DNA of 64,000 nt from NCBI RefSeq assembly GCF_004212215.1, contig NZ_QVFV01000012.1, forward strand, positions 1 through 64,000, in the 5' to 3' direction. The notes under the pieces are model-generated. The model was not told the origin of the DNA and ran no database searches. It was given only the letters and a program-made list of their open reading frames with translations. The position numbers and the translations under genes are program-made. The stretch is from Leptolyngbya iicbica LK. Lineage in GTDB: Bacteria > Cyanobacteriota > Cyanobacteriia > Phormidesmidales > Phormidesmidaceae. How positions within the stretch are numbered: position 1 is the stretch's first letter; each line of letters opens with the position of its first letter. Of this stretch, positions 51,158 through 55,300 are shown in pieces.

Positions 51158-54100
51158 ATGAATCCGCTACAAGATGTCTTCATTTCCTATGGACGGGCCG
51201 ATAGTAAGCAGTTTGCCAAGCGGTTGAACGATCGCCTCGTTGCCGAGGGGTTGGAGGTGTGGTTTGATTTTGACGACATTCCATTAGGGGTGGACTATCA
51301 AAAGCAAATTGATGACGGCATTGAAAAGGCGGACAACTTTCTCTTCATTATTTCGCCCCATGCCATTAACTCACCCTATTGCCGCTTAGAAGTGGAACTG
51401 GCCCTGCAACGGGGCAAGCGCATCATTCCGGTATTGCATGTCGAAGCGATTGACCGAGAGCTGTGGCAGCAGCGATATCCCACGGGCACGGATGCCGAAT
51501 GGGATGAGTACACCGCTGCAGGCAAACACGCCAGCTTTCCCAACATGCCGCCAGAGATTGGCAAAATTAATTGGGTGTACATGCGGGAAGACCTGGATGA
51601 TTTTGAGGCCTCTTTTCAGGGACTGCTGGCGATTTTTGCCCGCGATCGCGACTACGTCCATCACCACACGATGCTGCTGCAAGCGGCTCTGACCTGGGAA
51701 GCGCACCAGCGGCAGACCCCGTTTTTGCTGACTTCGGAGCAGCGATCGCAGGCTGAAAGCTGGCTACATCAGCGCTTTTCTGACCGCCAGCCCCCTTGTG
51801 AGCCAACGGTGTTGCATTGCGAATACATCACCGCCAGCATTAAACAGGCGCAGGGCGGCATGACAGCGGCCTTTTTGTCCTATGCAGACGAAGACAAAGC
51901 GGTGACGGAGCAGGTCCGGCAGTTGTTGATGCGGGAAGGCTTGACCGTCTGGACTAACTACACCGACTTGACGACGGGGGAAGACTTTCAAAGCGCGATT
52001 GATCGAGGCATCGAAGCCACGGACACCCTGGTGTTGGTGGTGTCGCCTGCGGCGATCGCCTCCGCTTATTGTTACCACGAAGTGCAATATGCTCTGAGCT
52101 TGCACAAACGGATTGTGCCGCTGCTGTATCAACCCGTGGCGGGGGAACCGTTGGTCGAGGACTGGGCAGCGATCCAGTCGTTGCAATATATCGATGTGAC
52201 GCACTGGAGCGCCGCGACGCCGGTGCCGCAACGGGATGAACCGGCGGTCAGCCAGTTGCTCAACATTCTGCAAACGGATGCGGGCTATTACCAACGCCAC
52301 AAAGTTGCCCTGACCCAAGCGCTCAAGTGGGATCGCCAGAGCCGTCCCCCCGGCCTCTTGCTGCGGGGCAATACTCTCCGTCAATTTGAGGGATGGTTGG
52401 CGGTCGCCCAGGAGCGATCGCAGTCCCCCGCCCTCAGCTTGCAAACGGAGTTCATCGAGGCGAGCCGCAATCAGCCTGAAGATCTCACCCTGGATGTCTT
52501 TTTGGCCTATGCGGATGAGGATGTCGAGTTTGCGGCTCAACTCAATGCGGCGCTACAAAATCAGGGAAAAAGTACCTGGTTTGATGAGGAAAGTATCGAC
52601 GCGGCAGCCGACTACCAAGCGGAACTGAACGAGGGCATTGAGCAGGCAGACAACATTGTCTTCATTGTTTCCCCAGCGGCGATCGCCCTCACGAGCTGCC
52701 TAAAGTCGCTGAGTTATGCTGCCAGCCTGGACAAACGGATCATTCCCGTACAGCTCCAGCCGGTGGAGGTGACGAGTTTGCCCCCGGCCATCCAAGCGCT
52801 AAAAGCGATTGATTTTCAGACGTATCGGAGTGACTTTTACGAAAAATACAGTGAATTAGTGCGCACCTTAGACCGCGATCGCGACCATATCCGGGGGCAC
52901 ACAAAATGGCTAAACCGCTCCCTGGAATGGGAGGCCGAGGGCCGCCCCAACGATATGCTGCTGCGGGGCAATGAATTGGCCGTGGCGGAGGGGTGGTTGC
53001 AGCAGGCGATCGCACTCCACAAGCTCCCGGTTCCTAGTGCACTCCAAAAAACTTTTTGTCAGGAAAGCCGGGCCGTGGTGGCAGCGGCAGAGCAGGCCGA
53101 AAAAGAGCGTCAGGAAAAAATATTGCGCCTCCAGCAAGAACGGGCTCAGGAAGCGGAGGCCCGGCTGAGCGCCGAACAGCGCAGTGCACGGGTGCAAAAA
53201 TTCTTTTTGGGGGCGGTGAGTGTCGGGTTTGCGATCGCCTGTGGGCTCAGTTTCTCGACCTGGAGGCAGTATCACCGTTCGTTAATCAACGAACTCGTTG
53301 CCACCACCAAATCCAGCGCCGCTTTATTTGCCTCCAATCGCAAACTGCAAGCGATCGTTGAAGCCATTCGCGCCCAAAACCAGCTCAGCCAACTGCGGGG
53401 TGAGCATCCCGACTTGGCCGCTGCCGCCGATGAAGTGCTGCAACAAGCCATCTACGGTGTGCGAGCCACCAACCAACTGGTCGGCCACGAAGACTGGGTG
53501 GTCGCCACCGCTTTTAGTCCCAACGGACAACAGTTGGCCAGTGGCGACAAAGCGGGAGTGATCAAAATTTGGCAAGCCGACGGCAAACTGCTGCATACCC
53601 TGGCCGCCCATGACCGGGGCGTCTGGGGCTTGGCCTTTAGCCCCGATGAGCAGCACCTCGTGTCCGGTGGGGCCGATCACCAAGTCCGCATTTGGGATAC
53701 CGACGGCACCCTGGTGCGCACCCTGAGCGGTCATGAAGATATTGTGGCGGGGGTAGCCTACAGTCCCGATGGTCGGGTCATTGCGTCCGTCAGTGTGGAT
53801 CAAACTCTGCGTTTGTGGACGGCAGCGGGTGAGCCCATGGGCGTGTTTGATCAAAATAAAGGCTACGTCGTCTCAGTGGCCTTTAGTCCTGACAGTCGCC
53901 AGGTGGCGGCCACCACCACCGATGGCCTGGTGACCATCTGGAACCGGACGGGAGAAAAAGTGGCCGTTTTGAAGGGGCATACTGGCCCAGTGTGGAATGT
54001 CGCCTTTAGCCCTGATGGTCAAACGATCGCGTCCGTGGGCGCCGATGGCACCATCAAACTGTGGAGCCTCGACGGCACCCTGATCAAAACCATGGAGGGC

Positions 54101-55300
54101 CATCGCGATGATGTGGAAGGGATCGCTTTCAGCCCTGATGGGCAGTACATCGTATCGGGTGGGGCCGACCATACCGTGCGGCTGTGGCGGCGGGATGGTA
54201 CCCCCATCGCCATCTTTCGCGGTCACGAAGATTGGGTCTGGTCGGTCAGCATGAGTCCCGATGGCCAAACCATTGCTTCCGGGGGGGGCGATAACTTGGT
54301 CACCCTCTGGCGCTTGAGCGACTTATTCACCACCTTAGAGGGCCATTCGACCGAGGTGTGGGATGTGGCGATGAGCCCTAACAACCAATTAATTGCCTCC
54401 GCCGTAGGAGATGGCACCGTCTGGCTGTGGGAGCGCGATGGCAGCTTGCGCCAGCAAATTAAAGCCCACACCAGCGGGATTGAACAGGTGGCCTTTAGTC
54501 CCGATAGTCAGGCGATCGCCACCGCCAGCTGGGATACGACGATCAAGCTCTGGGATTTAGCTGGCAACTTGCAGCAAACCTTTGAGGGCCACGACAACTG
54601 GGTACTGGGGGTGCGTTTCAGTCCCGATGGCCAATTGCTGGCCTCTTGCAGTGAAGACGGCACCGTGCGCATCTGGCAGCGTACCGGCGAAAGCGTGGCG
54701 GTGATGGGGGTGGGCGAAAACTATGGCGCGGCGGATGGGCTCAGCTTTAGCCCCGACGGCCAATTCATTGCCGTGGCGTTTGAAGATCACGTCGTCCGCA
54801 TTTGGGATCGCGCGGGCAACTTGGTGCAAGAACTGATCGGCCATGAGGGACCGGTCTACAGCACCGCATTTAGTCCCGATGGTCAGATGCTGGCTTCTGC
54901 CGGGGCCGATCGCACCATTCGTCTGTGGAATCGGGACGGTGAATTACTACAAACGCTCACTGGGCATGAAGACTGGGTGTGGCGAGTCGCCTTTAGCCCG
55001 GATGGGCAGACCTTAGCCTCAGGGGGCAACGATCGCACGGTTCGCCTCTGGTCGGTGGACGGCATGTTATTAAAAACTTTCCGGGGACACCAGGCGGCCG
55101 TCGAGGGGATTCAGTTCAGTCCCGATGGTCAGACCCTCGCCTCCGCCAGTTGGGACACCCGTGTCATTTTATGGAATCTGGAGGAAGCGGGGGATATTGA
55201 TCCCCTGACCTATGGCTGCGATTGGATTCGGGGATACTTAGCCCACAGTGCCGATGTAGACGATCAAGATCGGACGTTATGCGATCGGGCCGCGCCTTAA
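51158..55300 (+). CDS. Triple-TIR, membrane-anchored WD40 protein
   Basis: 1380 residues from ATG 51158. Three TIR domains lie at about 5-145, 235-350 and 443-555. Each is followed by a similar helical linker ending in a Trp-rich RGN-x-L segment. The catalytic Glu is present in TIR1 (E78) and TIR2 (E308) but is S517 in TIR3. A charged coiled coil (about 640-680) leads to one membrane span (about 682-700). Then come 14 WD40 repeats (about 774-1345), enough for two seven-bladed propellers. TIR domains can hydrolyse NAD+ or bind partners; the WD40s may sense or scaffold. The role is unknown; defence, cell death or signalling is possible. Confidence 0.9.
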   Translation: MNPLQDVFISYGRADSKQFAKRLNDRLVAEGLEVWFDFDDIPLGVDYQKQIDDGIEKADNFLFIISPHAINSPYCRLEVELALQRGKRIIPVLHVEAIDRELWQQRYPTGTDAEWDEYTAAGKHASFPNMPPEIGKINWVYMREDLDDFEASFQGLLAIFARDRDYVHHHTMLLQAALTWEAHQRQTPFLLTSEQRSQAESWLHQRFSDRQPPCEPTVLHCEYITASIKQAQGGMTAAFLSYADEDKAVTEQVRQLLMREGLTVWTNYTDLTTGEDFQSAIDRGIEATDTLVLVVSPAAIASAYCYHEVQYALSLHKRIVPLLYQPVAGEPLVEDWAAIQSLQYIDVTHWSAATPVPQRDEPAVSQLLNILQTDAGYYQRHKVALTQALKWDRQSRPPGLLLRGNTLRQFEGWLAVAQERSQSPALSLQTEFIEASRNQPEDLTLDVFLAYADEDVEFAAQLNAALQNQGKSTWFDEESIDAAADYQAELNEGIEQADNIVFIVSPAAIALTSCLKSLSYAASLDKRIIPVQLQPVEVTSLPPAIQALKAIDFQTYRSDFYEKYSELVRTLDRDRDHIRGHTKWLNRSLEWEAEGRPNDMLLRGNELAVAEGWLQQAIALHKLPVPSALQKTFCQESRAVVAAAEQAEKERQEKILRLQQERAQEAEARLSAEQRSARVQKFFLGAVSVGFAIACGLSFSTWRQYHRSLINELVATTKSSAALFASNRKLQAIVEAIRAQNQLSQLRGEHPDLAAAADEVLQQAIYGVRATNQLVGHEDWVVATAFSPNGQQLASGDKAGVIKIWQADGKLLHTLAAHDRGVWGLAFSPDEQHLVSGGADHQVRIWDTDGTLVRTLSGHEDIVAGVAYSPDGRVIASVSVDQTLRLWTAAGEPMGVFDQNKGYVVSVAFSPDSRQVAATTTDGLVTIWNRTGEKVAVLKGHTGPVWNVAFSPDGQTIASVGADGTIKLWSLDGTLIKTMEGHRDDVEGIAFSPDGQYIVSGGADHTVRLWRRDGTPIAIFRGHEDWVWSVSMSPDGQTIASGGGDNLVTLWRLSDLFTTLEGHSTEVWDVAMSPNNQLIASAVGDGTVWLWERDGSLRQQIKAHTSGIEQVAFSPDSQAIATASWDTTIKLWDLAGNLQQTFEGHDNWVLGVRFSPDGQLLASCSEDGTVRIWQRTGESVAVMGVGENYGAADGLSFSPDGQFIAVAFEDHVVRIWDRAGNLVQELIGHEGPVYSTAFSPDGQMLASAGADRTIRLWNRDGELLQTLTGHEDWVWRVAFSPDGQTLASGGNDRTVRLWSVDGMLLKTFRGHQAAVEGIQFSPDGQTLASASWDTRVILWNLEEAGDIDPLTYGCDWIRGYLAHSADVDDQDRTLCDRAAP

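What the first reader, a model, noticed from the sequence alone, without database searches (positions are those of the whole stretch)
51158..55300. Three tandem TIR modules joined to a membrane helix and 14 WD40 repeats in one protein
Visible in the sequence: three TIR domains, a charged coiled coil, one membrane span and exactly 14 WD40 repeats (two propellers). TIR-WD40 proteins exist in cyanobacteria, but three TIRs on one chain are unusual. TIRs are known NADases or partner-binding domains in antiphage defence and cell death; WD40 arrays may sense or assemble. A tethered, possibly oligomerising NAD-consuming switch is an inference.
Basis: partly seen in the sequence, partly recalled or inferred. 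Interest (0 to 1): 0.7.

Follow-up and report, generated by a model that had tools for sequence, protein, structure and literature searches.

The report
Cyanobacterial triple-TIR membrane receptor with WD40 sensor
This cyanobacterial gene encodes a membrane protein with three immune-type TIR domains, most likely inside the cell, and a double ring-shaped WD40 domain, most likely outside it; it belongs to a widespread family, which I could not find described, that looks like a bacterial counterpart of animal Toll-like receptors.

Summary
In detail: window 51158-55300 (+) encodes 1380 aa with three TIR domains, a coiled coil, one membrane helix and 14 WD40 repeats. It is not a one-off. The triple-TIR module (spacing ~1/232/436, three distinct TIR clades) recurs across cyanobacteria, joined after the membrane helix to WD40 arrays (usually 14 blades) or to a CHASE2 sensor; five-TIR versions and one Bacteroidota member also exist. 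Positive charges before the helix, near-absence of cysteine after it except one conserved tail pair, and exchange with CHASE2 indicate TIRs inside and sensor outside: a Toll-receptor-like layout in reverse order. In some close pairs the TIR module is ~85-90% identical while helix plus WD40 is only ~40-45%, with a breakpoint before the helix, so the sensor turns over. The NADase glutamate is kept in TIR1 (89/89) and TIR2 (87/89) but lost in this protein's TIR3. Some WD40-type genes lie beside LSDAT/SLOG, DUF4231/SLATT or patatin genes; most CHASE2-type genes lie beside DUF928. The window gene sits among housekeeping genes. Best reading: a membrane receptor with an NAD-cleaving output. Activity, topology and ligand are untested. 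I found no description in the papers searched.

The parts
51158..55300 (+). Whole gene: TIR-TIR-TIR-coiled coil-TM-(7+7) WD40, 1380 aa
51170..51445 (+). TIR1 (res. 5-96); catalytic-type Glu E78 at 51389-51391; most conserved of the three
   Evidence: Pfam PF13676; aligns with SARM1 and AbTir; E78 in 89/89 relatives
51446..51607 (+). Conserved insertion found only after TIR1 (res. 97-150)
   Evidence: alignments
51644..51850 (+). Helical module 1
   Evidence: helices
51863..52147 (+). TIR2 (res. 236-330); Glu E308 at 52079-52081
   Evidence: Z 18.0 to the IL-1RAcPb TIR; Glu in 87/89
52280..52483 (+). Helical module 2
52490..52777 (+). TIR3 (res. 445-540); catalytic position is Ser517 (52706-52708)
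   Evidence: Z 19.8 to a TIR domain; Glu in 78/89 relatives but not here
52880..53083 (+). Helical module 3
53075..53197 (+). Charged coiled coil (res. 640-680)
   Evidence: sequence; one long helix
53201..53263 (+). Membrane helix (res. 682-702)
   Evidence: hydropathy 1.89; same place across the family
53264..53461 (+). Helical linker between membrane helix and propellers
53462..55180 (+). 14 WD40 repeats, expected to form two 7-bladed propellers (res. 769-1341)
55181..55297 (+). C-terminal tail with invariant Cys1354 and Cys1375 (GCDWIRGYL...LC)
   Evidence: both Cys invariant in 25 aligned relatives

Best explanation
A single-pass membrane receptor. Residues 1-680 lie in the cytoplasm: a rigid array of three TIR domains with helical spacers. 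After one membrane helix, two 7-bladed WD40 propellers lie outside the cytoplasm (periplasm or thylakoid lumen) and bind a ligand or partner. Binding rearranges or clusters receptors through the membrane helix and coiled coil and brings TIR domains into an active assembly in which TIR1 and TIR2 cleave NAD+ or make an NAD-derived messenger; TIR3 in this copy has lost the catalytic residue and would serve as scaffold. In some relatives the signal probably runs to neighbouring effector genes (LSDAT/SLOG, DUF4231/SLATT pore, patatin phospholipase). Shown by computation: domain order, fold, family, orthologous TIR positions, sensor swap. Inferred: topology (well supported), NAD cleavage (residue conservation only), defence or danger-sensing role (neighbours and sensor turnover only).
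For: Fold and order. Topology: Lys+Arg in the 15 residues before versus after the helix 5.05 vs 3.15 in 61 WD40-type (51 more before, 10 equal, 0 fewer) and 4.76 vs 1.92 in 25 CHASE2-type; Cys 1.10 per 100 aa on the TIR side, 0.32 on the WD40 side, exactly 2 Cys after the helix in 46 of 61. In this genome, six of eight WD40 proteins with a membrane helix before the array have no Cys in it (the others 1 and 2), while four without one have 1-11. CHASE2, an extracytoplasmic sensor domain, replaces the WD40 array behind the same helix. Precedent: kinase-TM-WD40 proteins of Planctomycetota are predicted with WD40 in the periplasm (PMC11032199). Catalysis: Glu aligned with SARM1 E642 in TIR1 89/89, TIR2 87/89. 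Sensor turnover: L100_751/L122_9995 TIRs 88-94% but WD40 41%, with the drop between residues ~600 and 660; 21 of 61 arrays at least 60% internally identical. Neighbours: LSDAT_prok, DUF4231 or patatin near 11 of 49 WD40-only loci; this genome's only LSDAT_prok gene lies next to its single-TIR-TM-WD40 gene.
Against: No experiment on any member. AF2 has low confidence at the membrane helix. Most WD40-type loci (38 of 49) show none of these neighbours, and this gene sits among housekeeping genes. LSDAT and DUF4231 also occur near CHASE2-type genes (8 of 21), so they are not specific to the WD40 type. The flanking-charge difference is modest in the WD40 type. The named loci are the best 80 of 236, so counts are biased towards good matches. 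TIR similarity between tandem copies could also come from gene conversion of the TIR part.
Confidence: 0.55

Rival explanations
1. The WD40 propellers are cytoplasmic: the helix only anchors the protein, and the double propeller works like that of Apaf-1, as an internal sensor and assembly platform for the TIRs.
For: Apaf-1 is among the closest solved double propellers; the cyanobacterial WRAP double propeller belongs to a STAND NTPase protein linked to innate-immunity-like systems (PMC9218822); AF2 is not confident at the helix.
Against: Flanking charges, cysteine pattern and CHASE2 exchange all point to the outside. No NTPase domain, the motor of Apaf-1-type assembly, is seen.
Confidence: 0.2
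2. The TIR array is not an enzyme but an adaptor: TIR1-3 recruit other TIR proteins (26 TIR matches in this genome) and signal by assembly.
For: 26 TIR stretches in the genome; TIR3 here lacks the Glu; in five-TIR proteins the last TIR has Gln in 5 of 6; many TIR domains act as scaffolds (PMC7075850).
Against: The catalytic-type Glu is invariant in TIR1 (89/89) and nearly so in TIR2 (87/89), beyond what a scaffold needs.
Confidence: 0.2
3. The role is not antiviral but stress, surface or kin sensing (for example cell-envelope state or neighbour recognition in filaments), with cell death or a regulated NAD signal as output.
For: CHASE2-type relatives lie with DUF928 (17 of 21 loci) and ShlB/FhaC two-partner secretion genes (12 of 21); one sits on a plasmid with DUF928; no phage homologue; the window gene is not in a defence island.
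Against: LSDAT, DUF4231/SLATT and patatin neighbours are typical of conflict systems; fast sensor turnover fits recognition of changing targets, though kin recognition would fit as well.
Confidence: 0.35

Closest known systems
Toll-like / IL-1 receptors (animals)
   Same: One membrane helix between a sensor and cytoplasmic TIR domains (predicted here); the sensor evolves faster than the TIR part.
   Different: Reverse order (TIR at the N-terminus), three TIRs per chain, WD40 or CHASE2 instead of LRR or Ig domains, NADase-type glutamate kept. No common descent of the architecture is claimed.
SARM1, AbTir and other NADase TIR proteins
   Same: TIR1 matches them in sequence and keeps the glutamate aligned with SARM1 E642.
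   Different: No ARM/SAM control domains; membrane-bound; three TIRs in one chain. Activity untested.
Cyanobacterial STAND-WD40 'WRAP' proteins (Npun_R6612, PDB 2ymu) and nSTAND1-TM-WD40 proteins
   Same: The 14-blade double propeller; this genome's nSTAND1-TM-WD40 protein (L180:4960-8982) has the same C-terminal Cys-pair tail.
   Different: Triple TIR replaces the STAND NTPase.
Bacterial receptor kinases with kinase-TM-WD40 order (Planctomycetota STKs)
   Same: N-terminal cytoplasmic signalling domain, one helix, C-terminal WD40 predicted in the periplasm (PMC11032199).
   Different: TIR array instead of a kinase.
LSDAT/SLOG-SLATT conflict systems
   Same: LSDAT_prok, DUF4231/SLATT_3 and patatin genes lie beside part of the family.
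   Different: Association is partial (11 of 49 WD40-only loci) and absent at the window gene.

Membership tests
TIR domain (PF13676) | Sequence match above cut-off and TIR fold for each copy | tested here: met
   Three stretches, 243.6 bits against cut-off 28; predicted TIR strand/helix order in all three; Z 18-20 for TIR2 and TIR3. TIR1 was not among the listed structural rows but has the strongest sequence matches.
NADase TIR proteins (SARM1/AbTir type) | Catalytic glutamate | tested here: met
   TIR1 E78 (89/89 in family) and TIR2 E308 (87/89); not met in TIR3 of this protein, S517.
NADase TIR proteins (SARM1/AbTir type) | NAD+ cleavage | not testable with these tools
   Needs an enzyme assay.
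Toll-like receptor | Ectodomain - membrane helix - C-terminal cytoplasmic TIR, in that order, with LRRs | tested here: not met
   TIRs are N-terminal and the sensor is WD40. It may work like one; it is not a member.
Type II membrane protein with outside WD40 | More Lys/Arg before than after the helix; exported-type cysteine pattern | tested here: met
   indirect evidence only.
Thoeris (ThsB) | Match above the curated cut-off, and a ThsA partner gene | tested here: not met
   ThcB4 model 87 bits against cut-off 220; PADLOC ThsB models match only single TIR domains; no ThsA-type gene among ten neighbours scanned.
STAND / NLR-type proteins | STAND NTPase domain | tested here: not met
   Residues 1-647 fold as TIRs and helical modules only, 682-702 is the helix, and the rest is WD40; no stretch is left for an NTPase.
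WRAP-type double WD40 propeller | 14 blades forming two 7-bladed propellers | tested here: met
   14 repeats, 14 blades predicted, best match 2ymu by sequence and fold; the 7+7 split is taken from 2ymu, not measured on the model.
Type of system: LSDAT/SLATT conflict locus | LSDAT/SLOG and SLATT genes next to the TIR gene | tested here: not met
   Absent at the window gene; present at part of the relatives.

The most novel reading that the evidence does not exclude
A bacterial class of transmembrane pattern- or self-recognition receptors: exchangeable outside sensors (WD40 double propellers that are swapped and re-amplified, or CHASE2) drive a conserved three-TIR NAD-cleaving engine inside the cell. 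It would be a prokaryotic functional counterpart of Toll-like receptors that senses outside the cytoplasm, whereas the characterised bacterial TIR defences that I know of sense inside it.
Probability: 0.35. Interest if true: 0.85.

Novelty: new variant of a known kind. Interest (0 to 1): 0.62.

Why it matters
Characterised bacterial TIR defence proteins (Thoeris, TIR-SAVED, SPARTA, Cat1, SpbK) act on signals inside the cell (established knowledge). If the layout proposed here is right, bacteria also have TIR receptors that sense outside the cytoplasm through one membrane helix, the logic of Toll-like receptors, and change the sensor while keeping the engine. That makes a clear question testable: can a bacterial TIR be switched on across a membrane? 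The family also offers natural variants (WD40, CHASE2, coiled coil, five TIRs) for asking why several TIRs are joined on one chain.

Tried and rejected
(1) Link of the helical module to nSTAND1 proteins: it looked like the helical stretch of nSTAND1-WD40 proteins, but a profile of it finds only TIR proteins in this genome (the best other match is a 24-residue piece at E 0.0017). Not supported. (2) 'Only TIR1 is catalytic': first counts (TIR2 33/37, TIR3 28/37) suggested decay of TIR2 and TIR3, but the larger set gives 87/89 and 78/89 with all three intact in 76 of 89, so loss in TIR3 is a minority state shared by this protein. (3) Defence island around the gene: neighbours are housekeeping genes such as PRK, petH-like, homoserine dehydrogenase. 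(4) Empty-site test in genus mates: the two flanking genes are far apart or on other contigs in relatives, so no clean empty site could be shown. (5) Phage homologues: none. (6) Known structures with a TIR array: Foldseek and VIA-align return single TIR domains only (TMq at most 0.19); absence from these lists is not proof. (7) Literature: no paper found on triple TIR, TIR-CHASE2 or TIR-TM-WD40; Dunin-Horkawicz 2014 and other subscription papers were not readable, so an earlier mention cannot be excluded. (8) One tree run failed on group names and was redone with FastTree.
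Full report
WHAT IS THERE. The ORF at 51158-55300 (+) encodes 1380 residues. Pfam gives three TIR_2 stretches and 14 WD40 stretches. AlphaFold2 with 32 relatives gives three TIR-type domains, each followed by a helical module, with mean pLDDT 89.2 and pTM 0.83; the WD40 half gives 14 four-stranded blades. The nearest solved chain is 2ymu, the Nostoc WRAP domain, whose 14 blades form two 7-bladed propellers (PMC6805158). A 21-residue hydrophobic helix (682-702) follows a charged coiled coil.

A FAMILY, NOT A CURIOSITY. The genome carries 26 TIR matches. 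Two other genes share the triple-TIR module at 53% identity: L011:4125-8528 (-), with 15 WD40 repeats, and L012:3119-6373 (-), in which a CHASE2 sensor replaces the WD40 array. Of 39 related genomes, 23 have a match at E <= 1e-30, some of them to single-TIR proteins only. In an even sample of the phylum 11 of 386 genomes match at E <= 1e-100, so the family is patchy. A scan of 84,980 species found 236 relatives; the best 79 loci are all labelled as cyanobacteria. Among complete genes there, 57 are triple-TIR with WD40, 20 triple-TIR with CHASE2, 3 other, and 2 five-TIR with CHASE2. TIR starts fall near residues 1, 232 and 436 almost throughout. Of 61 WD40-type proteins, 45 have exactly 14 repeats. 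One more distant member with triple TIR, a membrane helix and a coiled coil lies on a plasmid of Bernardetia, a Bacteroidota (38% identity), so the module is not confined to cyanobacteria.

ORIGIN OF THE THREE TIRS. In a tree of TIR-plus-helix modules, first, second and third TIRs form three clades (18/18, support 0.999; 18/18, 1.0; 16/16, 0.73), and single-TIR proteins form another. The triplication is thus old and kept in order. Five-TIR proteins read T1-T2-T1-T2-T3, a duplication of the first pair.

CATALYTIC POSITION. E78 of TIR1 aligns with SARM1 E642 (numbering of SARM1 from established knowledge). Over 89 triple-TIR proteins the glutamate is present in TIR1 89/89, TIR2 87/89, TIR3 78/89; all three in 76. 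The window protein is one of 11 that lost only the third (S517). TIR1 is also the most constrained: 41 of 91 core columns are at least 95% identical, against 14 and 24. So TIR1 and TIR2 look enzymatically competent. This is inference from residues, not activity.

TOPOLOGY. Three independent lines place the TIRs inside and the sensor outside. First, Lys+Arg before the helix exceed those after it in 51 of 61 WD40-type proteins (10 equal, none fewer) and 24 of 25 CHASE2-type. Second, cysteine is 1.10 per 100 aa on the TIR side but 0.32 on the WD40 side, and 46 of 61 proteins have exactly two after the helix; in the window protein and in the 25 aligned relatives two invariant cysteines lie in the C-terminal tail. 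In the same genome, of eight WD40 proteins with a membrane helix before the array, six have no Cys in the array and the other two have 1 and 2; four WD40 proteins without a helix have 1 to 11. Third, CHASE2, an extracytoplasmic sensor domain (Kaur et al., PMC8195603), takes the WD40 position behind the same helix. Kinase-TM-WD40 proteins of Planctomycetota were likewise predicted with WD40 in the periplasm (PMC11032199). Limits: AF2 confidence is low at the helix and no fusion data exist.

THE SENSOR TURNS OVER. In 17 close pairs the TIR modules average 86-88% identity but the WD40 arrays 67%, in two modes. For L100_751/L122_9995 the TIRs are 88-94% identical and the WD40 arrays 41%; identity falls from 95% to 23% between residues ~600 and 660, at the end of helical module 3. 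L100_5603/L122_14425 shows the same. These genes occur as tandem copies, so gene conversion of the TIR part is possible; either way the sensor differs while the engine stays. Of 61 arrays, 21 are at least 60% internally identical, a sign of recent amplification (threshold as in PMC9218822); the window array is old (42%).

NEIGHBOURS. The window gene is flanked by DUF4912 and cNMP-binding genes among housekeeping genes, which are far apart or on different contigs in relatives. Elsewhere, WD40-type genes lie near LSDAT_prok (6 of 49), DUF4231/SLATT-like (7) or patatin (5), any of them in 11 of 49; L107 has LSDAT-patatin-3TIR-WD40-DUF4231. In the own genome the sole LSDAT_prok gene is next to the single-TIR-TM-WD40 gene. 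CHASE2-type genes lie near DUF928 (17 of 21) and ShlB/FhaC (12 of 21), with CHAT-TPR genes; LSDAT or DUF4231 also in 8 of 21. The own CHASE2-type gene has DUF928 beside it too.

MECHANISM. Most likely (0.55): ligand binding or clustering outside the cytoplasm rearranges the triple-TIR array inside, and TIR1/TIR2 cleave NAD+ or make an NAD-derived messenger. Rivals are a cytoplasmic WD40 platform (0.2), a non-enzymatic TIR adaptor (0.2) and a stress or kin sensor rather than antiviral defence (0.35; overlaps with the main model, since it concerns the trigger).

COMPARISON. It works like a Toll-like receptor but is not one (order and sensor differ). It is not STAND (no NTPase) and not Thoeris (ThcB4 model 87 bits against 220; no partner). 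The propeller is of the WRAP kind. The architecture was not found in the literature searched, which lacks most subscription journals.

VERDICT. Observation confirmed; interpretation partly supported; a new variant of a known kind (TIR signalling proteins), with a testable and unusual claim about membrane topology and sensor exchange.

Noticed in passing
L087:13068-17582, L090:11520-16061, L091:2437-7251, L092:2959-7488, L093:2687-7249: Five-TIR proteins with CHASE2 (order T1-T2-T1-T2-T3); the fifth TIR has Gln at the catalytic position in 5 of 6.
   Followed up: partly
L013:1124-4330 and L013:4437-5213 (G000:C1 ~323-327 kb): Single-TIR-TM-WD40 gene directly next to the genome's only LSDAT_prok (SLOG in TRPM) gene; relatives of this single-TIR form occur in all genus mates searched.
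   Followed up: partly
L109:4444-6756: DUF4231 (SLATT-like) fused to a C39-type peptidase and a chitinase-like domain, beside a triple-TIR-WD40 gene.
   Followed up: no
L193:5995-8502 (Bernardetia plasmid): Triple-TIR-TM-coiled-coil protein in Bacteroidota, near several transposase genes; possible horizontal transfer.
   Followed up: partly
L070:4163-9130 (G001:C482): A genus mate's copy has an in-frame TAA inside the first TIR-helix region: a broken gene or an assembly error.
   Followed up: no
L133:7155-9362, L136, L163, L168: A cluster of proteins (one with TPR-S, some shorter with no Pfam match) lies between triple-TIR-WD40 and DUF4231 genes in Microcystis and Xenococcaceae.
   Followed up: no
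L018:59-2010 (G000:C14): Two adjacent separate TIR genes on a 41-kb contig.
   Followed up: no
L180:4960-8982, L184, L186, L188 (own genome): Other TM-WD40 proteins, including nSTAND1-TM-WD40, share the cysteine-pair tail motif (C.W..DYL...C) and lack Cys in the array: the outside-WD40 layout may be general in this genome.
   Followed up: partly
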